A DNA stretch of 34,676 bases from a virus. This document shows, piece after piece, positions 85-32,054 of the stretch. Position numbers and translations under genes: made by a program. Location: positions 1 through 34,676 of the IMG/VR virus record IMGVR_UViG_3300023174_006331, one strand, 5' to 3'. The notes under the pieces are model-generated. The model worked only from the letters and a program-made list of their open reading frames with translations. It made no database searches and had not been told where the DNA came from. Positions within the stretch are counted from its first letter, which is position 1. Each line of letters starts with the position of its first letter.

Positions 85-263
85 TTAGGTTTAATTGAAT
101 ATAGCTCTGGTTTTGTGGTAATTTTATTCAAATAATTTTTAGCATTTATTAAACCATCCTTACTATATGGAAAAACACCATATTGAAAATTATCTTTTTT
201 TGAAATTAAGATGTAGTATTTTTTCTTTTTAAGTTTTGTTTTTTTTATTTTATTCTTTTTCAT
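81..263 (-). CDS. Small basic hypothetical protein (60 aa)
   Basis: A 60-residue protein with a strongly lysine-rich N-terminus (MKKNKIKKTKLKKKKYY), then a more ordinary segment with aromatic residues (FQYGVFPYSKDG). I recognise no family. It overlaps the upstream gene by 14 bases and the downstream one by 4 bases (ATGA), so it sits inside the minus-strand operon and is probably translated. The basic N-terminus could bind nucleic acid, but that is only a guess from composition. Confidence 0.5.
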   Translation of the reverse strand: MKKNKIKKTKLKKKKYYILISKKDNFQYGVFPYSKDGLINAKNYLNKITTKPELYSIKPK

Positions 264-495
264 TGTTTAAATATTGTTTTATTTTTTCCCAATGGTTTTT
301 GCTCACGCCAAGCCGACTATTCTCTGCTAGTCTATATGCGTTTTTAGCTTTTGAGTCTGGTACTTCTTCTGATAACTGTATATCAGATGGAATAGAGTCT
401 ACATAATTTGTTATTAGGACTTTCATATGGTCGTCAAGTTTATGAAAATATGATGCCATTTCGTAAAGATGAACCTTTATTGACTGCTTATTCAT
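250..495 (-). CDS. Hypothetical protein (81 aa)
   Basis: Unknown small, probably helical protein beginning MNKQSIKVHLYEMASYFHKL and ending in a charged tail. A longer version from an ATG at 519 is open (89 aa), but the ATG at 495-493 overlaps the end of the ACP gene by only 8 bases (ATGAATAA), like the other junctions of this operon, so I prefer it. No catalytic motif is visible. Its place directly after the ACP gene might mean a shared function, but nothing in the sequence shows it. Confidence 0.55.
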   Translation of the reverse strand: MNKQSIKVHLYEMASYFHKLDDHMKVLITNYVDSIPSDIQLSEEVPDSKAKNAYRLAENSRLGVSKNHWEKIKQYLNNEKE

Positions 496-760
496 TTCGT
501 TTTTGTATTTTAAATTCAATAAATTCTATAAATTCATTAAATGTTCTTTCTTTTATGTTTAGTTCTTTAATGTCTTTTGCTGTAGAGATCAATTGAATTT
601 TATATTTATCTTCTATTTCAGAACATATAGACAATAAAGAAAGAGAATCTATATTTAGAGCACCCATTTTAACATTAATATAATCTTGAATTTGATTTTC
701 TGAAAAATTAGTTTCTTTAATAATTAAAGACTTAATAAAATCAACTTCTTGAGTATTCAT
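488..760 (-). CDS. Acyl carrier protein-like protein
   Basis: A 90-residue acidic protein with the phosphopantetheine-attachment motif of acyl/peptidyl carrier proteins: LNIDSLSLLSICSEIEDKY at about residues 35-53, with Ser39 in Asp-Ser-Leu as the expected attachment site at the start of helix II. Length and predicted helical content fit type II ACPs (75-95 aa). A holo-ACP synthase is encoded about 2 kb upstream in the same operon (2667-2981), which strongly supports a working, phage-modified carrier. The acyl or aminoacyl cargo and the enzymes using it are not evident in the window. It ends in an 8-base overlap with the next gene. Confidence 0.82.
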   Translation of the reverse strand: MNTQEVDFIKSLIIKETNFSENQIQDYINVKMGALNIDSLSLLSICSEIEDKYKIQLISTAKDIKELNIKERTFNEFIEFIEFKIQKRNE

Positions 761-772
761 ATTAATATTATA

Positions 773-1765
773 CTAAATATTCTCTTTATCTCCAGAAAAT
801 ACAACATCACAATAATCTTTTAATTCTCTGGATATATACTCTTTCATGTTATCAAAATCATTAAATTTAATAAAATTCGGACCTAATTCATTATCTAATC
901 TTATTTTAAATATATTTAGTTCTTGTAAGATGTCGCATTTATTGATAATCAATTTGTTTGTTCCAGATATCCTTACAGCATTTAATAATCTATTGAAATT
1001 AAGCCAATTAACTAATCTTTTTCTACCAGTTGTAGTTCCATATTCCTTGCCTAAATCTATTATTTTATTTAATTCCTCATCTGACCATAATGACTCTGGA
1101 AATAATGGATCAACTCCACTTTTGGTATCATAAATTTTAGCTACCCCAATAATATTTCTTATCTTTTTAGGACTAAAGCCTAAAGAGCAAGCAGAATATG
1201 GCAAAGTCTCGCTACTTGTAACATAAGGATAATCGCCATAATTTAAATCTAACCAAAAACTTTGAGCACCTTCACAAAGAATATCCCCATCAAGCTCTCC
1301 ATTCCAAATATGCTTTTTATCTAAATAGTCTTTAGCAAGTTTACCTACTCTTAAAGCTTTATCAGAATAACATGGAGCAATTCCTTGACCAGTTGTTCCA
1401 AGTCTTGGTTTTAAAAACTTAAGATCATACTGAATATGTCTTTCAGTAATAATATGAGTTTTAGGACTAACTTTAATTAAGGATGTATCAAAACCTTCTT
1501 TTGAAAGATATTCTAGTTCATCAAAAAACTTATCAATATTGATAACGCAATTTGGACCAATAATTGATTTCTTATTATGAAATACTCCAGAAGGAATAAG
1601 ATGTGTTTTATATTTTTTTCCATTTAAATAAACTGTGTGACCTGCATTTGGCCCACCATTCCATCTGCATACATAATCATATTTACTAGATAAAGCATTA
1701 GAAATCTTACCCTTGCCTTCATCTCCCCAGCATAAGCCAAAGATGATATCTACTGCATTAATCAT
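773..1765 (-). CDS. purA: Adenylosuccinate synthetase (short, archaeal/phage-length form)
   Basis: Joins IMP and L-aspartate with GTP to make adenylosuccinate, the first committed step to AMP. Visible motifs: the N-terminal P-loop WGDEGKGK (13-20) with the catalytic Asp15, NAGHT (40-44) with the conserved His43, GTTGQGIAP (123-131), EGAQS (165-169), YPYVTSS (179-185), and the aspartate-binding loop GTTTGRKR (243-250). At 330 aa it is about 100 residues shorter than typical bacterial PurA and near the archaeal size. Keeping Asp15 distinguishes it from PurZ of 2-aminoadenine phages, which by family knowledge lacks that residue, so I read it as an IMP-using PurA. Its ATG overlaps the preceding stop by one base (TAATG). 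Confidence 0.93.
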   Translation of the reverse strand: MINAVDIIFGLCWGDEGKGKISNALSSKYDYVCRWNGGPNAGHTVYLNGKKYKTHLIPSGVFHNKKSIIGPNCVINIDKFFDELEYLSKEGFDTSLIKVSPKTHIITERHIQYDLKFLKPRLGTTGQGIAPCYSDKALRVGKLAKDYLDKKHIWNGELDGDILCEGAQSFWLDLNYGDYPYVTSSETLPYSACSLGFSPKKIRNIIGVAKIYDTKSGVDPLFPESLWSDEELNKIIDLGKEYGTTTGRKRLVNWLNFNRLLNAVRISGTNKLIINKCDILQELNIFKIRLDNELGPNFIKFNDFDNMKEYISRELKDYCDVVFSGDKENI

Positions 1766-1983
1766 TACTCGCAGTTATAAAGTCTACTTGGGCTTCTTAT
1801 ATCAAAAATAGAAACATTCTGTTCTTTTTTATCATTAAAAACATTTAAAGTTTCATGATCCACCACTCTATTCACTAATCCACAATAACCCTCTTGAGTT
1901 AGACTATTTGTAATAACAAATACTTTCTTGCCAATCATTCTCTTAAGAATGTTTGCTTTTGTTTTATTTAATGTTGTATCCAT
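1765..1983 (-). CDS. Small hypothetical protein (72 aa), possible Sm/SH3-like beta barrel
   Basis: Sequence such as KKVFVITNSLTQEGYCGLVN and ETLNVFNDKKEQNVSIFDI gives alternating hydrophobic strands and turns that look like a small beta barrel (Sm- or SH3-like). That fold idea is an inference from the pattern only, and no family motif is recognised. It sits between the metallophosphoesterase (21-base gap) and purA (one-base overlap), so it is co-transcribed and probably translationally coupled to purA. Confidence 0.65.
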   Translation of the reverse strand: MDTTLNKTKANILKRMIGKKVFVITNSLTQEGYCGLVNRVVDHETLNVFNDKKEQNVSIFDIRSPSRLYNCE

Positions 1984-2004
1984 CTTTATATATTATCCTA
2001 TATT

Positions 2005-2667
2005 TTAACAAAAGTCCAGATCTATTTTACCTTTTTTATTAATTGTTACATAACTGCATTTTTCTTCGCAAAAACTGCCAGTATTAATATAGTTATGAGA
2101 TATTTCTGGTATGTGAGTATGACCACAAATGATTTTATCATAACCATTAAGGTCTATATATTTTATAGCATTTTTTTTAACATCTGAGCTTTTTTCTACA
2201 AAATCATTTGTTCTATTCTTGAAAATTTTAAAAAAATCATCTGCATAAGGAGTATATTTTCTAATAAAATAATAGCATTTGACTATGATATTGGTAATCC
2301 ATTTGTATTTTGTAAAATATATATCAAATATATCACCATGTACTACAAGAATTTTATTTTTATTATACTCAAGAACATGATCATTTTCGCACTTAAAACC
2401 TAATAGAATACTCATAAATTCTGCTTTAAGAAAGCAATGATTACCGATTAAATATACAATTTTACATTTTTTGGAAAGTTTCCTTAATTTTGATAACACT
2501 CTCCAGTGTTCTTTTTTGAGCCTATGAAGATTATGATGATCAAATAAATCTCCAGCAATAATTATCTTATTAGCTTTAATATTTTTTAGAACTTTTAAAA
2601 GCCGATCTGGATGACAATCTTTTGAACCTAAATGAACATCTGAAAAAATCAAAACATCAGTTTTCAT
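2005..2667 (-). CDS. Calcineurin-like metallophosphoesterase (LpxH-like family)
   Basis: A 220-residue two-metal phosphoesterase with all the usual blocks: SDVHLG near the N-terminus, AGDLFD, IGNH, VVHGD, and CGHTHIPE near the C-terminus, followed by INTGSFCE. This order and the NTGSFCE block resemble the LpxH/YbbF-type branch of the superfamily, whose best-known member hydrolyses UDP-2,3-diacylglucosamine. The real substrate cannot be read from the sequence and could be a nucleotide, a phosphodiester or a lipid precursor. It overlaps the AcpS stop by one base (TAATG). Family call sure, substrate open. Confidence 0.88.
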   Translation of the reverse strand: MKTDVLIFSDVHLGSKDCHPDRLLKVLKNIKANKIIIAGDLFDHHNLHRLKKEHWRVLSKLRKLSKKCKIVYLIGNHCFLKAEFMSILLGFKCENDHVLEYNKNKILVVHGDIFDIYFTKYKWITNIIVKCYYFIRKYTPYADDFFKIFKNRTNDFVEKSSDVKKNAIKYIDLNGYDKIICGHTHIPEISHNYINTGSFCEEKCSYVTINKKGKIDLDFC

Positions 2668-2981
2668 TACTTGCTTTTCATATTTAAAACAATTGCAGTA
2701 GCATATTCTTTTTCATGACTTATTGATACGCATGCTTTAATTTTCTTGCCTTTTATATAAATGCATGGCTTATTATTTTTAGTTAGAATTTCAATCTCTT
2801 TATTTATATATGGCAAGCCAGCTTTAAAAGCTGCTTCTTTTGCTGCCCATTTTCCAGCTAATTTTTGATGTATGTTAGATTTTGTTGTTTCTAAAATCTC
2901 TTTGTCTGAAAAAATTTTACTGAAAAAAGAATATTTTTTATTTGTAAATCTATTAATCTCTACAATATCTATACCAATCAT
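2667..2981 (-). CDS. acpS: Holo-[acyl-carrier-protein] synthase (4'-phosphopantetheinyl transferase)
   Basis: Transfers 4'-phosphopantetheine from CoA to the serine of an ACP. At 104 residues it is slightly shorter than bacterial AcpS (about 120-126). Diagnostic blocks are present: GIDIVEINRF at 3-12 (metal-binding Asp5), FSKIFSDKE at 20-28, AGKWAAKEAAFKA at 42-54 (metal-ligand Glu49), and SISHEKEYATA at 86-96. The matching ACP gene lies downstream in the same operon. The start lies 2 bases after the stop of the IMPDH/GMPR-family gene. Encoding its own AcpS suggests that the phage ACP is a poor host substrate or that carrier activation is limiting during infection. Confidence 0.92.
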   Translation of the reverse strand: MIGIDIVEINRFTNKKYSFFSKIFSDKEILETTKSNIHQKLAGKWAAKEAAFKAGLPYINKEIEILTKNNKPCIYIKGKKIKACVSISHEKEYATAIVLNMKSK

Positions 2982-2983
2982 AA

Positions 2984-4090
2984 TTATTTTCCATGAGCAA
3001 AAGCTTCATACATGCTATTTGCAGTTGGAGAAATTACTTTAATTTTGTTCTCCCAAATGCCTCCACGCATTTCTTCTATAGTTCTAAATCCAAGATAACT
3101 CATCGCACTTCTCAAACCATTTGCATAATCGTAAACTACATCTTCAATCGTCTTATCTTGAATCAAAGGAATTAAAGTTTTGTCTCCTTCGACAAATAGA
3201 TTCTTTTTGCTTCCATCATAAAGTTCATAATCTTCAACTACGTCTTTACTCGCCATTCCTCTGTAAGTAGCGAATAATCGTCCATCTTTTTCTATAATAT
3301 TTTCTTGATCTACAACGTCAGCTAAACCAGCAAAAATTCTACCACAAATTACTGCGTCTGCTCCACTAGCAATAGCTTTAACTAAATCTCTTGGATTTCT
3401 TATTCCTCCATCGGCAAGAATACTTGGTCTATCTTCTTCTTTTGGATTTTCTTGGCTAAAGTGATCTGCGTTAGCTAATTGATAATTTCTAATAGCCTCC
3501 CAAGCATAAGACAATCCAGTAACACTTGGACATCCAATTCCAGTTTTAATCTGAGTCAAGCACATACTTCCTGGACCAATTAAGTGTCTAAATCCATCAG
3601 CTTTTAAATTCGCTAATCTATAAACACTAGGTTTTGTTAAAGTGTTTCCAACTATAATATCTTGTTTGTATGAAGATTGTTTATACCAAATCAGAAAATC
3701 TTCTACGCTTTTGGCTAAACCATTAGCTGTATCTAAAAATAATATATCTGTGTTTTTATCTAATTCTTTTATTCTATAATATGCGTCTTTTAAACCGATA
3801 GCAGAAATACAGAATCCACTTTGATCTTTAATTTTACCAGCTTTTAGAGCTTGCTCTTCTGCGCTCATAAATCTATGAAGGACTCCTGCCCCACCAATTT
3901 TATTAATTTTTATGCAGGATTTTACTGAAGATACAGTATCCATTGGAGATAATATTAATGGAATATCTATATATTTATTTTTTGATATTTTAGTTATTGT
4001 ACTTACTTCTTTTCTAGAAGAAATATCAGAGAAATTTGGGAGCAAGCAGATATCATCATATCCAAGCCCAGCATCAATTTGTATCTTCAT
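2984..4090 (-). CDS. IMP dehydrogenase / GMP reductase family enzyme (no CBS domains)
   Basis: A 368-residue TIM-barrel purine enzyme. The catalytic loop IGPGSMCLTQIKTG (171-184) carries the nucleophile Cys177 and Thr179, the phosphate-binding LADGG is at 225-229, and a flap begins YRGMAS (276-281). The CBS pair of typical IMPDH is missing: the barrel continues directly after LHRFMSAEEQA. YRGM resembles IMPDH, but the Arg-Tyr dyad expected later in the IMPDH flap reads Asp-Tyr (VEDYEL), and overall length and the FVEGDKT segment also suit GMP reductase. I therefore leave the reaction open: IMP to XMP, or GMP to IMP. The second would feed the phage PurA. Confidence 0.9.
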   Translation of the reverse strand: MKIQIDAGLGYDDICLLPNFSDISSRKEVSTITKISKNKYIDIPLILSPMDTVSSVKSCIKINKIGGAGVLHRFMSAEEQALKAGKIKDQSGFCISAIGLKDAYYRIKELDKNTDILFLDTANGLAKSVEDFLIWYKQSSYKQDIIVGNTLTKPSVYRLANLKADGFRHLIGPGSMCLTQIKTGIGCPSVTGLSYAWEAIRNYQLANADHFSQENPKEEDRPSILADGGIRNPRDLVKAIASGADAVICGRIFAGLADVVDQENIIEKDGRLFATYRGMASKDVVEDYELYDGSKKNLFVEGDKTLIPLIQDKTIEDVVYDYANGLRSAMSYLGFRTIEEMRGGIWENKIKVISPTANSMYEAFAHGK

Positions 4091-16241: not shown

Positions 16242-18119
16242 ATGGCTAAAAAACTCCAAAAAGACGAAAAATTAACAAACTATACAACTGGTGAGCCTTT
16301 GATGGCTGTAGCAGGAATGAAAGAAATTAAAGCTTCTGATAAGCTTAGAAGAAATAGATCTGCCACCATAGAAAGAACAGATAAATACGCTAATATTACT
16401 AATGGACTAATACCATTTAATAGATCTTCTACTAGCGTTTATAGTTCTTCTAATATGGATGTTAGAGATGCAGTCATTTTATGTCAAAAGGCTTATTATA
16501 ATTTTGCAATATTTAGAAACACAGTAGACTTAATGACTGAATTTAGTTCTAGTAAAATTTATTTTAAAGGTGGAAGTCAAAAGAGCAGAGATTTTTTTGA
16601 AGCATTATTTAATAAAATCAATCTTTGGAGTTTTCAAGATAAGTTTTTTAGAGAATACTATCGCTCTGGAAATGTATTCATGTATAGATTTGATACTAAT
16701 ATTAAAGAAGATGATCTAATTAAAATCACCCAAACATTTGGTATTAGCAAAGCTGCTTCTGTTACTCTTCCATCTAGATATATAATTATTAATCCAGCAG
16801 ATATTCAAATTGCTGGCAATATTAGTTTTGTTACCAATAAATTTTATAAAGTATTAAGCGATTATGAACTAGAAAGACTTCGTAGCCCAAGAACAGAAGA
16901 AGACAAAGAAGTATACGAATCATTACCTCAAGACGTTAAAGATAATATTCAAAAGAAAGCTAATGTTGCAATTATGCCATTAGATTCTCATAGATTAGTT
17001 GCTGTATTTTATAAGAAACAAGATTACGAGCCATTTTCTGTTCCAATGGGATTCCCAGTTCTTGAGGATATTAATGCTAAAGCTGAAATGCGTAAAATGG
17101 ATATGGCAATTGCAAGAACAATGCAACAAGCAATTCTTCTTATTACTATGGGAACAGATCCAGACAAGGGCGGTATAAATCAAAAGAATCTTGAGGCTAT
17201 GCAAGCTCTATTTCAAAATGAAAGCGTTGGAAGAGTTCTAATTGCAGATTATACAACAAAAGCTGAATTCATTGTTCCTCCAATTGCAGATCTTCTTGAT
17301 CCTAAAAAGTATGAAGTAATAGATAGAGATATTCAAATTGGTTTAAATAATATTCTTATTGGAAGTGAAAAATTTGCTAATACAAGTATTAAGGTGCAAG
17401 TATTTATTGAAAGATTAAAACAAGCAAGAGAAGCTTTTATTAATGAGTTTCTTGCTCCAGAAATTATTCGAATGAGTAAAAGTCTTGGATTTAAAAATTA
17501 TCCAATGCCATATTTTGAAGATATTGATTTGAAAGATGATATTCAATATTCTAGAGTTTATAATAGATTAATGGAACTCGGAATATTAACTCCAGAAGAA
17601 GGTCTCAAGGCTATTGAAAGTGGTAGATTACCAGATGCAGATTCTTCTATTGAAAGTCAAAAGAAATATAAAGCATTAAGAGATCAAGGATATTATCTTC
17701 CTGTTATTGGTGGAAATCAACAAGCTGGTGGTAGACCAACTGGAAGTACTGGAACACCTCAATCAACAAAGAATGTAAGTCCTATTGGTGCTGGTAAACA
17801 ATCTAAAGCAGAATTTAGTGCTAAAAAAGTTGGAGAGAATTTTGTTCTTGCATCTAAATTAGAAGATCATGTATCAGATTTAATTAAAGAAAAATTTAAA
17901 ATTAAAAAATTAAATAAACAACAAAAAACTATTGTAAATGATATTTCTAAAATGATTGTATCTAATGAAGATTCTGTAAAATGGATTGAGAGTGCTGCTA
18001 GTTATATTGAAAATCCAATTGATAAAAATAAAGAAAATATAAATGAAGTTTTAGAAATTGCAGAGAATCATCAAGTAGACTCTTACATTGCCAGCATATT
18101 AAGAAATAGTAAAGTTTAA
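16242..18119 (+). CDS. Portal protein
   Basis: A 625-residue protein in the portal position directly after the large terminase. The size is right, and the middle has typical portal features: an alpha/beta stem-side region (SGNVFMYRFD; LPSRYIIINPADIQIAG), a long helix with MDMAIARTMQQAILLITMG, and the following LDPKKYEVIDRDIQIGLN and FANTSIKVQVFIERLK, which match T4-like portal proteins of large phages. The C-terminus has a Gly/Thr/Gln-rich linker and a lysine-rich helical tail. It forms the dodecameric DNA entry ring. It ends in a 3-base overlap with a convergent minus-strand gene. Confidence 0.85.
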   Translation: MAKKLQKDEKLTNYTTGEPLMAVAGMKEIKASDKLRRNRSATIERTDKYANITNGLIPFNRSSTSVYSSSNMDVRDAVILCQKAYYNFAIFRNTVDLMTEFSSSKIYFKGGSQKSRDFFEALFNKINLWSFQDKFFREYYRSGNVFMYRFDTNIKEDDLIKITQTFGISKAASVTLPSRYIIINPADIQIAGNISFVTNKFYKVLSDYELERLRSPRTEEDKEVYESLPQDVKDNIQKKANVAIMPLDSHRLVAVFYKKQDYEPFSVPMGFPVLEDINAKAEMRKMDMAIARTMQQAILLITMGTDPDKGGINQKNLEAMQALFQNESVGRVLIADYTTKAEFIVPPIADLLDPKKYEVIDRDIQIGLNNILIGSEKFANTSIKVQVFIERLKQAREAFINEFLAPEIIRMSKSLGFKNYPMPYFEDIDLKDDIQYSRVYNRLMELGILTPEEGLKAIESGRLPDADSSIESQKKYKALRDQGYYLPVIGGNQQAGGRPTGSTGTPQSTKNVSPIGAGKQSKAEFSAKKVGENFVLASKLEDHVSDLIKEKFKIKKLNKQQKTIVNDISKMIVSNEDSVKWIESAASYIENPIDKNKENINEVLEIAENHQVDSYIASILRNSKV

Positions 18120-18985
18120 ATATTAAAAATATTTTTAAATTTATTAAATAATTGTTCTGTTTGTTTAATCTTATATAAATTTTTATCTATCGTCTCAAAT
18201 GGATATTGCCAATAAAGACTAGTTGTGCCTGTGCTATATTCACCATAATACAATAATTCTGTATTATGTTTTTGCTTGAAATATTCTATAAGTTTTTTTG
18301 AGATACTCTTTTCGTTTAATTTTTCAAAATTAAATTGTTTAAAATTATAATTAAAAACAATTATAATTTTCTGTGTTCCATCTTCTAATTCTGTCACTTC
18401 CATATGATTTATATTTTCTATATTCTCATTGATTGAATATTTATTTAAAAAATATTGAATATCATTTTTATCAAAATAATAAAAATATAAATTTTTCTTA
18501 AAAGTGTTGTTAAAATATTCTACAGATACTCCAAAAAAAATTGTATTTTTTTCTTTAAAAGTATTTGATTCTATAAATTCATTTAATGGTTCTTTAATTT
18601 TTAAATGAAAATATTGCTTCATTTCATAATCTCTATTAATTTTGATAGCAAAACATGAATGAGATTGTCTTGAGGAATCTATATAGTTTATATAATATTT
18701 GAATAAATTTACATCAGGAATAAATTTTAATATTATATTATCCGAATAAGATTCATTTATTTCACAATATATTTTAAAATTTTTTATTTTATTATTATCT
18801 ATATTCATGCTTATTAAATTAGATAAAGGTCTTAAATCTTTTTTGTCTTTTCTGGACCTGTCTATTGAATTAATATTTAATATAAAATCTTGAACAGATT
18901 TTAATTTATAAAATTTATAAAAAATTTTATCAAATATGTAATATTTTTCTTGTTTATTAAAATTTAAATCAATTCTTTGTTTCAT
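18116..18985 (-). CDS. Hypothetical protein of the A+T-rich island (289 aa)
   Basis: Unknown protein very rich in Asn, Lys, Ile, Phe and Tyr, as expected from extremely A+T-rich DNA. No signal peptide, membrane segment or known motif is evident. The pattern looks like a mixed alpha/beta soluble domain (KLIEYFKQKHNTELLYYGEYSTG near the C-terminus). It overlaps the next gene by 4 bases, so it belongs to the same transcription unit as the glycosyltransferases and may be a partner of, or a virion protein modified by, those enzymes. That link is inference. Confidence 0.65.
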   Translation of the reverse strand: MKQRIDLNFNKQEKYYIFDKIFYKFYKLKSVQDFILNINSIDRSRKDKKDLRPLSNLISMNIDNNKIKNFKIYCEINESYSDNIILKFIPDVNLFKYYINYIDSSRQSHSCFAIKINRDYEMKQYFHLKIKEPLNEFIESNTFKEKNTIFFGVSVEYFNNTFKKNLYFYYFDKNDIQYFLNKYSINENIENINHMEVTELEDGTQKIIIVFNYNFKQFNFEKLNEKSISKKLIEYFKQKHNTELLYYGEYSTGTTSLYWQYPFETIDKNLYKIKQTEQLFNKFKNIFNI

Positions 18986-19632
18986 AATAAAAATATATTA
19001 TCAAATACTTTTGGCCAACTATTTAAAATAACTTCAGATGGATTGCTCCCTGTAATAACAGAATTATTTACTTCTTGATCTATCATCTCTAAAAAACTTT
19101 GTACATAAGATTTTATTGTCGGATCATCTGCATCGTAATCTAATGATAGATTATTTATTTTATTAATATAATATGGTTTGATTTTGTCTTTTAATAAATT
19201 TTTATAAATTTTTATATAATTTTCTATATTCTCATTTTTATATAAATCTAATGAATTTTTAAAATTAAAAGGTATCATAAACATAGAATACGAATCTGAA
19301 CAATAAATAATATAATCTTCATGATGTTCATATGAAATGTAGTATTCATTTTTTAAAAAATCTATTTTATTTTTTTTAGATATAATATTTTTTATTTTTA
19401 ATTGTAAATCTTGATTTTGTTCGTTTTTTTCGCAATGTATGAAACCATTAATTTTATCAATATCTAAATATAAATCTTTATTAAACGCTGGATTTAGTCC
19501 ATAAAGTTTTTTATTATCTTTTATAGATATAAATTTAAATGGAATTTCAAGATTAATATCATCATCTTTTTGATATTTTATTAAGCAAATTTGGTCTTTT
19601 AGGTTAATGATATTTTCCAATAATTCATTCAT
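18982..19632 (-). CDS. Hypothetical protein, paralogue A of the island (216 aa)
   Basis: Unknown 216-residue protein related to the one at 21155-21832. Shared blocks are INGFIHCEKNEQ versus IKGFICAENKSQ, YYISYEHHEDYIIY versus YNISYTYDDKYILY, MFMIPFNFKN versus IFMLPFNIKN, and NSWPKVF versus YNWPKVL near the C-terminus. The family is unknown to me. The two copies bracket two glycosyltransferase genes, which hints at a role in the same process. A late-promoter motif at 19641-19649 precedes the start on the minus strand. Confidence 0.65.
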   Translation of the reverse strand: MNELLENIINLKDQICLIKYQKDDDINLEIPFKFISIKDNKKLYGLNPAFNKDLYLDIDKINGFIHCEKNEQNQDLQLKIKNIISKKNKIDFLKNEYYISYEHHEDYIIYCSDSYSMFMIPFNFKNSLDLYKNENIENYIKIYKNLLKDKIKPYYINKINNLSLDYDADDPTIKSYVQSFLEMIDQEVNNSVITGSNPSEVILNSWPKVFDNIFLL

Positions 19633-19635
19633 ATA

Positions 19636-20373
19636 TTATAATTTACACATTATATCTTTATATAAAAAATTAAATGTTTCTGATTCTGATTTATACCAGC
19701 TATTCATACACATATGAATAGATATTTTTTGTTTATCATTAGTATTGTCTTCCATTTTATTTATGTAAAGATATTCATCACCATAAAATATATCATATTT
19801 ATTAATAATATCCCTGCTTATCTCATGCATATAAGTTAAATAGATTGGTCCAGTTTTAATTAAAGTAAAGAATGGGTCTTTAATTTTGCCTCCGCAATAG
19901 TTTGCCTTTACAAGTTCTAATGGTATATTATAGTTTAAAGAATCTAATAATCTTTTAAAAAAAAGATTATTTTTTTCTGAACCAAGTATGCAATTAGCAA
20001 TAGTAATATTTTTACCATAAAAAAATGGACTATATTCTGCGCTTTCATAAAAAAAACATAAATTGTGCTTATTTAAATTGATATAAGTATTTATTGGTTT
20101 TAAGAAAAAAAAGTCTAAATCAAAATAAAATCCACCAAATAAATATATTATAGCATATCTAAATATATCAGCTTTTTGTCCATTATTTTCGCACTTATCA
20201 ATTAAAGGATATATATTTGGAAGTTCTATTTTTATTAATTTTATGCAATCTTCATCTGTCCAAAATTTATACTCCCAATCTTTATGTAAATTTTTTATAT
20301 TATTTATGTTTTTTTCAAAAAAAATTGATAAATTTTTATTTTTCCAAGTCTGATGAATTATTTTTGGAATCAT
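19636..20373 (-). CDS. Glycosyltransferase with DXD motif, GT32/OCH1-like
   Basis: A 245-residue enzyme starting MIPKIIHQTWKNK, the N-terminal signature of the GT32 (Gly_transf_sug) family. The catalytic region QKADIFRYAIIYLFGG then FYFDLD (about 66-87) has the metal- and nucleotide-sugar-binding Asp-Leu-Asp at 85-87 and the conserved R-Y-x-x-L-x-x-x-G-G context. The fold should be GT-A, using a UDP- or GDP-sugar. It overlaps the GT31-like gene by 4 bases, so the two may act in sequence on one glycan. The acceptor is unknown; tail-fibre genes are the nearest candidates. Confidence 0.82.
   Translation of the reverse strand: MIPKIIHQTWKNKNLSIFFEKNINNIKNLHKDWEYKFWTDEDCIKLIKIELPNIYPLIDKCENNGQKADIFRYAIIYLFGGFYFDLDFFFLKPINTYINLNKHNLCFFYESAEYSPFFYGKNITIANCILGSEKNNLFFKRLLDSLNYNIPLELVKANYCGGKIKDPFFTLIKTGPIYLTYMHEISRDIINKYDIFYGDEYLYINKMEDNTNDKQKISIHMCMNSWYKSESETFNFLYKDIMCKL
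19641..19649 (-). promoter_or_regulatory. Late-promoter motif within the glycosyltransferase island
   Basis: Reading the minus strand, TGTGTAAAT at 19649-19641 lies 17 bases from the ATG at 19632. It sits inside the last codons of the upstream GT32-type gene, so it could give the downstream pair its own late transcript. Confidence 0.5.
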
Positions 20374-21158
20374 TTTTTTGAAGATAAAAAATATTTATTT
20401 AAAAATATAAAATCTTTACAAAGTTTTAATCTATCTTCAAAATTTTTATTTTTTATCATTTTTTTTAATAAAATTACAGGTATTGGATGAAAATGTATAT
20501 TTAAATTATCTATGCCATAAAATGTATGATCAAAAAATATATATTTTATATCTAAAATTTTATGATTAATTTTACTACATACATATCCTACAGCTATATC
20601 TTCTTGAGGAATTGCTGTTATATCTATATTATTTTCATTTATAATTTTTTTTGCAGTATTTAAAATGTTAATAATTAAATCTCTAGAAAAAATAACAAAA
20701 TTTCCTTCGGTATAATCAAAATCTACATTTTTTATTTGTTTTAAATAATCAAAATTATAATTTTTTCTCAAATTGTTTTGTTTAATGTATTTTTTGTATG
20801 AATTTTTAACAGTTAACATATGATTTTTTAAAGAAGCTCTTTTACCAATTATATCATAATTTTTTGTATCTATTTTTTTTAACTCATCTATATCTATAAA
20901 AGTATCATCATCTATTTTAACAAGATATTCTTCTTCTCTATGCTCTATAAAATATTTAAATAATAAAAATGTTTTTTTTGTTAAATTAGAATAGCAATCA
21001 CTAGTATTTAAACAAACAGATTTATCATGATTTAGCTTATCTGTTCCATAAAAATATATATAATTATCAAAATTATAAAATTTAAATAAATCATCGTAAT
21101 GCTTTATGAAATTAAAATTTTTTGGACATGTCCCAACTGCTATAAGAAAATCTTTCAT
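20370..21158 (-). CDS. Glycosyltransferase, GT31/galactosyltransferase-like
   Basis: A 262-residue GT-A type enzyme. Evidence: LLFKYFIEHREEEYLVKIDDDTFIDIDEL with the metal-binding Asp83-Asp84-Asp85, then EGNFVIFSRDL and PQEDIAVGYVC, the order seen in beta-1,3-galactosyl/N-acetylglucosaminyltransferases (GT31) and fringe-like enzymes. There is no membrane anchor, unlike eukaryotic members. It lies between paralogue B and the GT32-like gene with 4-base overlaps on both sides. Sugar and acceptor cannot be read. Confidence 0.75.
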   Translation of the reverse strand: MKDFLIAVGTCPKNFNFIKHYDDLFKFYNFDNYIYFYGTDKLNHDKSVCLNTSDCYSNLTKKTFLLFKYFIEHREEEYLVKIDDDTFIDIDELKKIDTKNYDIIGKRASLKNHMLTVKNSYKKYIKQNNLRKNYNFDYLKQIKNVDFDYTEGNFVIFSRDLIINILNTAKKIINENNIDITAIPQEDIAVGYVCSKINHKILDIKYIFFDHTFYGIDNLNIHFHPIPVILLKKMIKNKNFEDRLKLCKDFIFLNKYFLSSKK

Positions 21159-21832
21159 TTTTTTAAAAAATCTATAGTTAAAAATGGATTAGGCGCTAAT
21201 ACTTTAGGCCAATTATATTTAATTAAATCTATTGGAGTATCTGCTATAAATTTTTGATTTTTATTAATATCGTTAATTTTATGTATGATATTGCTTTTTT
21301 GAATTTGAATATCTTTATTATTATTAAATTTTTTTATTATATTTAGTAATTTTAATTTTGTACATTTGCTATATTTTTTAATAAATTTTTTATATATATT
21401 TGTATATAAATTTAAATTTTGATTAGAGTTTAATAAATCTATATTTTTAATATTAAAAGGTAGCATAAAAATTGAATCTATACTGGGATTATATAATATG
21501 TATTTATCGTCATAAGTATATGATATATTATATGTATTTTTTAATTTTTTTAATAAAGTTTTTTTATATTTAATTGTGTTAATTTTATTTTTTATATCTT
21601 TGTATTGGCTTTTATTTTCTGCGCAAATAAAACCTTTTATATTTTTTAATATTAACCTAGTATTTTTTTTAGTTATAAAATCAAATCCTTCAATATAATT
21701 TTTTGAAATTAAAAAATTATTTTTATATAAAAATGGTATTTCTAATTCAAAATTATCTCCATCGAATATGTATTTAACAAAACAATATTTATTAAAAGAA
21801 CATTTAATTAATTCTTCAATTAATGGTGTCAT
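21155..21832 (-). CDS. Hypothetical protein, paralogue B of the island (225 aa)
   Basis: Related along its length to the protein at 18982-19632 (shared GFI-C-E-N, IxYxxDxYIxY, FMxPFN and NWPKV blocks) but more lysine/asparagine-rich and diverged. No family recognised. The N-terminal half is beta-rich, the C-terminal half helical and basic. A variant of the late-promoter motif (AATGTAAAT, 21866-21858 on the minus strand) lies about 34 bases from its ATG inside the upstream gene. Confidence 0.65.
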   Translation of the reverse strand: MTPLIEELIKCSFNKYCFVKYIFDGDNFELEIPFLYKNNFLISKNYIEGFDFITKKNTRLILKNIKGFICAENKSQYKDIKNKINTIKYKKTLLKKLKNTYNISYTYDDKYILYNPSIDSIFMLPFNIKNIDLLNSNQNLNLYTNIYKKFIKKYSKCTKLKLLNIIKKFNNNKDIQIQKSNIIHKINDINKNQKFIADTPIDLIKYNWPKVLAPNPFLTIDFLKK

Positions 21833-31635: not shown

Positions 31636-32054
31636 GGGCCCGTAATGGTTTCGATTTTAAAAAATGGAATTGAAATGCAAGTAGAGTTGAAGTAGACTCT
31701 TTAAACAGCTTCAAAAACACTTAACTGCCAAAACAGCTAAGCTAAAAGGTAGTTTCTCATTGAGAGTTTCTCACAATAAGAAGCACCTAATCGCAGCCTA
31801 AAAATCTGCGACCTGTTACCTATGACACATCTAATAGAATAATGGGTATTTAGATGTATGTCTTTAAATCCTTTTTATTTAATTTTTAAAGATATTATTC
31901 AGGGTGGATATGGCTAAGGTTGTATTCATTTTTAAATAAATAGCTATAGCTCAATTGCTTATTCGACACTACAGCGAAATAACGGAATAAGATAAACTTG
32001 TAGTATTTTAATTTGACTTTTTAAAAGACAAGAGTTCAATTCTCTTCGGGTCCA
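31636..32054 (+). ncRNA. ssrA: Transfer-messenger RNA (tmRNA), one-piece
   Basis: A complete phage tmRNA of 419 bases. The acceptor stem GGGCCCG (31636-31642) pairs with CGGGTCC (32047-32053) and includes the G3-U70 pair that marks alanine charging; discriminator A is 32054 and CCA is not encoded. The T arm is AAGAG/CTCTT with loop TTCAATT. Upstream, TAAACTTGTAGTATT matches the 3' P2 region of bacterial tmRNA. PK1 is visible near nt 48-78 (stem AGAGT/ACTCT, pseudoknot TTGAAG/CTTCAA). The resume codon is GCC at nt 92 (31727), close to nt 90 in E. coli. The tag of 24 residues starts AKTAKLKG and ends KHLIAA; its TAA (31799-31801) sits in the hairpin CGCAG/CTGCG, as in E. coli. Confidence 0.93.

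What the first reader, a model, noticed from the sequence alone, without database searches (positions are those of the whole stretch)
488..2981. Phage ACP plus its own holo-ACP synthase in one operon
A carrier protein with the DSL attachment site and the enzyme that activates it are encoded together, with an LpxH-like phosphoesterase between them. Phages rarely carry this pair, and no acyl- or peptide-transferase is visible here. Possible uses: acylation of a surface lipid or of a virion protein, diverting host fatty-acid or lipid A synthesis, or carrier-bound steps of a DNA base modification. The customer enzyme may lie beyond base 1.
Basis: partly seen in the sequence, partly recalled or inferred. 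Interest (0 to 1): 0.74.

Follow-up and report, generated by a model that had tools for sequence, protein, structure and literature searches.

The report
Phage carrier protein with own activator
An uncultured family of large bacterial viruses carries a small acyl carrier protein, the enzyme type that switches such proteins on, and an unknown protein that travels with the carrier, which suggests that the virus builds a private carrier system whose purpose is still unknown.

Summary
Window 488-760(-) encodes an acyl carrier protein (ACP) with Ser39 at the start of helix II. Window 2667-2981(-) encodes an AcpS-type phosphopantetheinyl transferase that keeps the family's conserved Asp and Glu. The pair recurs in 12 further IMG/VR contigs. 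It is absent from 55 related contigs that keep IMPDH and PurA. The phosphoesterase does not belong to the pair: 21 of those 55 contigs have it, and one pair-bearing contig lacks it. It also fails the LpxH cut-offs. What does track the ACP is the next gene, p250 (81-110 aa, helical, no relatives found), present whenever the contig reaches it. In the window and L002 the ACP-p250 segment is replaced as a block (53-59% DNA identity to L003/L007, between flanks at 80-94%), while AcpS is not. No ketosynthase, adenylation, PlsC-type or desaturase domain was found in the 13 pair-bearing contigs. Best reading: a phage-specific ACP, activated by a phage enzyme, works with p250; acyl group and target unknown. 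Phage ACPs are known; the dedicated activator plus matched partner is a new variant.

The parts
2667..2981 (-). AcpS-type phosphopantetheinyl transferase, 104 aa
   Evidence: TIGR00556 65.2 bits over cut-off, Pfam ACPS over cut-off; PDB AcpS 4e-15; D5, R11, K48, E49 and H89 invariant in 14 of 14 phage sequences
488..760 (-). acyl carrier protein, 90 aa, Ser39 of the D-S-[L/F] motif
   Evidence: D38 and S39 invariant in 11 of 11
250..495 (-). p250, 81-aa helical protein of unknown family; ATG at 495 overlaps the ACP stop by 8 nt (the longest reading frame begins at 519)
   Evidence: co-present with ACP and AcpS wherever the contig reaches; replaced together with ACP; no family, PDB or fold match
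773..1765 (-). PurA-like adenylosuccinate synthetase, 330 aa; general feature of the phage group, not part of the ACP module
   Evidence: Pfam 7e-81; present in trio-negative contigs
1765..1983 (-). 72-aa conserved protein, function unknown; general feature of the group
2005..2667 (-). calcineurin-like metallophosphoesterase, 220 aa; present with and without the ACP pair
   Evidence: Pfam Metallophos 4.7e-12; in 21 of 55 trio-negative contigs, absent from trio-positive L030
2984..4090 (-). IMPDH/GMP-reductase family protein, 368 aa, upstream neighbour; general feature of the group
   Evidence: Pfam 9.6e-64

Best explanation
The module is AcpS + ACP + p250. Proposed working: the phage AcpS moves 4'-phosphopantetheine from host coenzyme A to Ser39 of the phage ACP (inferred from the families). 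The holo-ACP, probably carrying an acyl group supplied by host enzymes (inferred), then works as the cofactor or partner of p250, a small helical protein whose gene overlaps ACP and is inherited and exchanged with it (linkage shown; physical binding inferred). The phage brings its own AcpS because its ACP lacks some of the acidic positions that ordinary AcpS enzymes read (inferred). The final target, a host or a virion process, is not known.
For: AcpS in 13 of 13 trio contigs, ACP in 12, p250 in 11; the misses are L006, which ends inside PurA, and L008, which ends inside ACP. 0 of 55 related contigs that hold both IMPDH and PurA has any of the three. AcpS and ACP sit at two separate points of one operon, so they do not co-occur merely by being adjacent. 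ACP-p250 exchange: window against L003 and L007, DNA identity PurA 91/94, MPE 88/88, AcpS 87/80, but ACP 59/59 and p250 53/53. ACP identities follow p250 (Spearman 0.72, 0 of 2000 permutations as high) and not the other neighbour PurA (-0.19) or AcpS (0.02). Short p250 (81 aa) goes with ACP 'DSL' in 3 of 3 and long p250 with 'DSF' in 8 of 8. Selection: median dN/dS AcpS 0.21, ACP 0.23, p250 0.41. No condensing, adenylating, PlsC-type or desaturase domain in 13 trio records, with controls positive.
Against: Trio presence changes only 2 (PurA tree) or 3 (IMPDH tree) times, so co-presence rests on few events. ACP and p250 are adjacent and overlapping, so linkage alone could move them together; within the eight long types ACP-p250 (0.35) is no better than ACP-AcpS (0.35). 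By overall identity the L030 ACP is nearer the long-type ACPs (45-49%) than the window's (33%). p250 has no recognisable fold or catalytic signature, so calling it a partner is an inference. Binding was not modelled. Trio contigs are at most 47 kb, so an enzyme elsewhere in the genome is not excluded.
Confidence: 0.4

Rival explanations
1. The pair serves an acyl- or aminoacyl-processing enzyme encoded elsewhere in the phage genome, for example to acylate a surface lipid, glycan or virion protein; p250 is a bystander.
For: In a second phage group (G011, G035-G038) AcpS and ACP do come with fatty-acid desaturases in 5 of 5 records and a ketosynthase in 1 of 5, and the ACP and a desaturase frame overlap by 4 nt in L190. 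Trio records are fragments.
Against: PF00109, PF00501, PF01553 and PF00487 gave 0 of 13 trio records, although G003 holds about 21 kb beyond the ACP.
Confidence: 0.25
2. Host takeover: the phage holo-ACP mimics host ACP and diverts or signals in host fatty-acid metabolism or one of the other host processes that bind ACP.
For: Lone phage ACPs are reported from several phages, with a suggested fatty-acid role (PMC11705849) or unclear function (PMC5463345).
Against: The phage ACP is far from canonical ACP (window 14.7 Pfam bits, below cut-off) and lacks the acidic residue after D-S-L that the canonical ACP 8gsa shows, which argues against plain mimicry.
Confidence: 0.2
3. Carrier-bound step of a DNA base modification linked to the neighbouring PurA/IMPDH genes.
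For: Same operon; PHROG_1211, described as '2-aminooxy adenylosuccinate synthetase', matches PurA.
Against: PurA and IMPDH occur without the pair in 55 of 68 contigs. PurZ model NF038379 scores 96.1 against cut-off 300, and PurA keeps the Asp of WGDEGKGK, which PurZ enzymes, as recalled, lack.
Confidence: 0.06
4. LpxH-like lipid A interference: ACP, AcpS and phosphoesterase act together.
For: Phosphoesterase present in 12 of 13 trio contigs; closest NCBIfam model is PRK05340, E 2.1e-13.
Against: Phosphoesterase in 21 of 55 trio-negative contigs, absent from trio-positive L030, and below both LpxH cut-offs.
Confidence: 0.03

Closest known systems
Phage-encoded acyl carrier proteins (PHROG 5934 and 4154; Vi01-like phage SH19, Erythrobacter phage R6L, Alteromonas phage R22Y)
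   Same: Small ACP of the PP-binding superfamily in a phage genome; function called unclear in R6L
   Different: The window ACP matches neither PHROG. None of the passages read mentions a phage AcpS or a co-exchanged partner gene
Roseobacter prophage acpP-fabF-fabG sets (PMC8224337, passages)
   Same: Phage-borne ACP
   Different: There ACP sits with fatty-acid enzymes in the host gene order; here no such enzyme was found, and a dedicated AcpS is present instead
Bacterial AcpS (holo-ACP synthase)
   Same: Family, size class, conserved Asp, Glu, Lys and His; the best bacterial matches are Anaerococcus (46-55% identity in the top eight rows)
   Different: 104 aa; below the acpS equivalog cut-off TIGR00516 (41.8 against 59.8); forms its own phage clade
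LYR-motif proteins with mitochondrial acyl-ACP (recalled analogy)
   Same: A small helical protein working with acyl-ACP is what is proposed for p250
   Different: No Pfam LYR match in any of the 11 p250 members at E up to 10 and no fold match; an analogy of working only

Membership tests
Phosphopantetheinyl transferase superfamily, AcpS type | Superfamily profile above curated cut-off | tested here: met
   TIGR00556 65.2 against 45.35; Pfam ACPS 42.7 against 25
Phosphopantetheinyl transferase superfamily, AcpS type | Conserved Asp (GIDI) and Glu (WAAKEA); their role as metal ligands is recalled | tested here: met
   D5 and E49 invariant in 14 of 14; aligned with D and E of 3hyk and 1f80
AcpS equivalog (holo-ACP synthase) | TIGR00516 cut-off 59.8 bits | tested here: not met
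   41.8 bits; so not filed as a housekeeping AcpS equivalog
Acyl carrier protein (PP-binding) | D-S-[LF] attachment site at the start of helix II in a four-helix fold | tested here: met
   Helix 39-53, model pLDDT 71; ACP folds in nearly all of the 50 listed rows, Foldseek E 0.015 or worse, prob up to 1.00
Acyl carrier protein (PP-binding) | PF00550 curated cut-off 20.8 bits | tested here: inconclusive
   Window 14.7, not met; 6 of 13 orthologous trio records over the cut-off
Acyl carrier protein (PP-binding) | Serine carries 4'-phosphopantetheine | not testable with these tools
   Needs mass spectrometry
LpxH | LpxH equivalog cut-offs | tested here: not met
   PRK05340 50.0 against 134; TIGR01854 34.7 against 190.35
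PurZ (2-aminoadenine pathway) | NF038379 cut-off 300 bits | tested here: not met
   96.1 bits
LYR-motif protein (p250) | Pfam LYR profile match | tested here: inconclusive
   No LYR family among matches of 11 members at E up to 10, but HMMER's filters drop most weak matches

The most novel reading that the evidence does not exclude
A phage-private carrier system: an ACP made orthogonal to the host, activated by its own AcpS and serving as the cofactor of a new family of small helical proteins (p250), with ACP and p250 swapped as a matched cassette between phages, as one would expect of a host-facing effector.
Probability: 0.3. Interest if true: 0.75.

Novelty: new variant of a known kind. Interest (0 to 1): 0.5.

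Why it matters
Phage ACPs have been annotated for years without a settled function. Here the carrier comes with its own activator and a strictly linked partner gene, which names a specific protein to test and turns a loose auxiliary metabolic gene into a three-part system. If the partner works through acyl- or holo-ACP, phages would be using the phosphopantetheine arm outside fatty-acid synthesis. The second phage group, where ACP and AcpS come with desaturases, gives an independent comparison with a visible chemistry.

Tried and rejected
Lipid A/LpxH reading: rejected on cut-offs and independence from the pair.

DNA-base reading: weak; PurZ cut-off not met, operon common without the pair.

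Customer enzyme near the pair: PF00109, PF00501, PF01553 and PF00487 gave 0 of 13 trio records; controls rang in 14, 12, 10 and 6 of 14 genomes. F47, a neighbour in 5 of 13 trio contigs and a weak match in trio-negative L082, L089 and L149, is not strictly linked.

p250: no family (for the window frame, only chance-level matches; for the L003 homologue against PHROGs; for 11 members against Pfam); PDB sequence best E 0.21; Foldseek PDB and BFVD nothing at E <= 0.001; VIA best Z 3.3; no locus outside the trio contigs in IMG/VR, none in genome contigs, none in named phages. The p250 model is of the L003 homologue (106 aa), not the window's 81-aa form.

Cassette test inside the eight long types: no excess over AcpS, a result against a general ACP-p250 co-evolution claim.

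One phage origin of AcpS: the tree needs two changes, one origin not excluded; the L225 row carried an internal stop, read as X, and the bacterial rows were a hand-picked 37 of the 80 loci.

Literature: seven searches. No paper on a phage AcpS with ACP turned up in these listings, which cover only the held open-access papers. Read as passages only: PMC3220722, PMC5977210 (58, 64: the 'acyl carrier' hit is a reductase), PMC8224337, PMC5463345, PMC11705849. The rest were seen as listings.

Rows left out of counts: 19 loci that repeat a contig or the window; L012 (no PurA); 14 PurA loci that hold no IMPDH; L006 (PurA cut short) from the trees. The PurA scan kept the best 80 of 397 relatives, so the 55 negatives are a sample and include near-identical viruses.

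Full report
What is there. The window is a whole IMG/VR record of 34,676 bases. On the minus strand an operon runs dCMP deaminase-like (read by eye), dUTPase-like, three small genes, an IMPDH-family gene, AcpS-like (2667-2981), metallophosphoesterase (2005-2667), a 72-aa gene, a PurA-like gene (773-1765), ACP (488-760), p250 (250-495) and a 60-aa gene.

Is the pair real? AcpS-like: over the cut-off for TIGR00556 and Pfam ACPS, nearest solved structures are AcpS, conserved Asp, Lys, Glu and His invariant in 14 of 14 phage sequences. It misses the acpS equivalog cut-off (41.8 against 59.8), so I call it AcpS-type, not a housekeeping AcpS. ACP: weak alone, but the orthologous family is over the PP-binding cut-off in 6 of 13 trio records, finds ACPs in the PDB and models as the ACP fold with Ser39 opening helix II. 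The model's confidence is moderate (pLDDT 71) and the Foldseek E-values are modest (0.015 or worse), with probability near 1. dN/dS shows constraint on both.

Who else has it? Scans of IMG/VR with AcpS, ACP and PurA and a profile search of all reading frames give 13 trio contigs, window included. In 13 of 13 AcpS is present, in 12 ACP, in 11 p250; the misses are contigs that end first. 55 related contigs that hold IMPDH and PurA have none of the three. In the PurA tree this needs 2 changes, in the IMPDH tree 3, so the events are few. Named phages: tblastn with the window AcpS and ACP gave nothing. The L012 AcpS gave nothing. The L003 ACP gave two marginal matches (E 0.01). The L190 AcpS gave 8 matches, all in unannotated records filed as Listeria, Enterococcus and Staphylococcus phages. 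Records under the same phage names also match PurA and IMPDH queries, so I suspect host DNA there; this was not tested.

What belongs to the module? The phosphoesterase does not: 21 of 55 trio-negative contigs have it, 9 of them also between IMPDH and PurA, and trio-positive L030 lacks it. p250 does by presence. In DNA comparison of the window with L003 and L007, identity is 80-94% in AcpS, MPE, the 72-aa gene and PurA, falls to 59% in ACP and 53% in p250, and rises again (77% and 68%) in the next gene. ACP identities across 11 contigs track p250 (0.72; 0 of 2000 permutations) but not the gene on its other side, PurA (-0.19), nor AcpS (0.02). p250 comes in a short form with DSL-type ACP (3 of 3) and a long form with DSF-type ACP (8 of 8). 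Against this: within the long forms the correlation is 0.35 and no better than with AcpS; the L030 ACP as a whole is nearer the long-type ACPs; and overlap of the two frames can make them travel together without any function.

How it most likely works. AcpS loads ACP Ser39 with phosphopantetheine (inferred from family). The ACP then serves p250 (inferred from linkage and exchange). Which acyl group, and to what end, is open. The dedicated AcpS is explained by the unusual ACP: after D-S-L/F the phage has Ser or Ala where the canonical ACP 8gsa has Asp. That this position and nearby acidic residues are read by AcpS is recalled knowledge, not tested. AcpS is not exchanged with ACP, so one activator appears to serve both ACP types.

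Comparison. Phage ACPs are known: PHROGs 5934 and 4154 carry that name, and papers report them in Vi01-like phages, Erythrobacter phage R6L and Alteromonas phage R22Y. No PHROG beyond chance level matched three AcpS variants tested (window, L012, L016). A second group, L012/G011 and G035-G038, has AcpS with a canonical ACP and 1 to 10 fatty-acid desaturase matches per record, plus a ketosynthase in G011, a Rieske protein (tested in G011 only) and radical SAM (tested in L190). G035 and G037 also hold frames that I read, by eye and without a profile test, as ribonucleotide reductase and tail-spike genes. The AcpS tree places this group apart from the window's, though a single origin is not excluded. 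So phages seem to have taken up the ACP plus AcpS pair at least once with visible lipid chemistry and once without.

Verdict. The pair is real and conserved in one uncultured phage group, its proposed lipid A and DNA-base uses are not supported, and the strictly linked p250 is the lead to follow.

Noticed in passing
L012 (record G011), 1-20291; L188-L191 (records G035-G038): Unrelated phage contigs with AcpS, a canonical ACP and fatty-acid desaturases (10, 3, 2, 2 and 1 matches in the five records), plus a ketosynthase and a Rieske protein in G011 and a radical SAM protein in L190. In L190 the ACP and a desaturase frame overlap by 4 nt. It looks like a phage-borne acyl-carrier desaturation cluster.
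   Followed up: partly
window 31636-32054 (+): ARAGORN tmRNA with an unusually long predicted tag, AKTAKLKGSFSLRVSHNKKHLIAA.
   Followed up: no
window 18116-21832 (-): Block of about 17-20% G+C in a roughly 30% G+C contig, with frames that look like glycosyltransferases beside tail-fibre-like genes.
   Followed up: no
window 773-1765 and 2984-4090; loci L023-L101: A short (about 330 aa) PurA-like gene and an IMPDH-family gene travel together in a large uncultured phage group (66 of 81 contigs in the trees hold both). Neither window protein meets an equivalog cut-off shown.
   Followed up: partly
L004:14706-16199 (also in G004 and G008): Carbamoyltransferase (Pfam Carbam_trans_C 7.3e-52) left of the ACP region in three trio-positive contigs.
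   Followed up: no
L219 and L232: AcpS-like sequences in contigs titled Nitrosopelagicus and Nitrosopumilus, near the window's phage clade in the AcpS tree; unexpected for archaea, origin not checked.
   Followed up: no
INPHARED records such as OR846620, OR847386, OR848446: Unannotated phage records that match AcpS, while records of the same phage names match PurA and IMPDH; they may hold host DNA.
   Followed up: no
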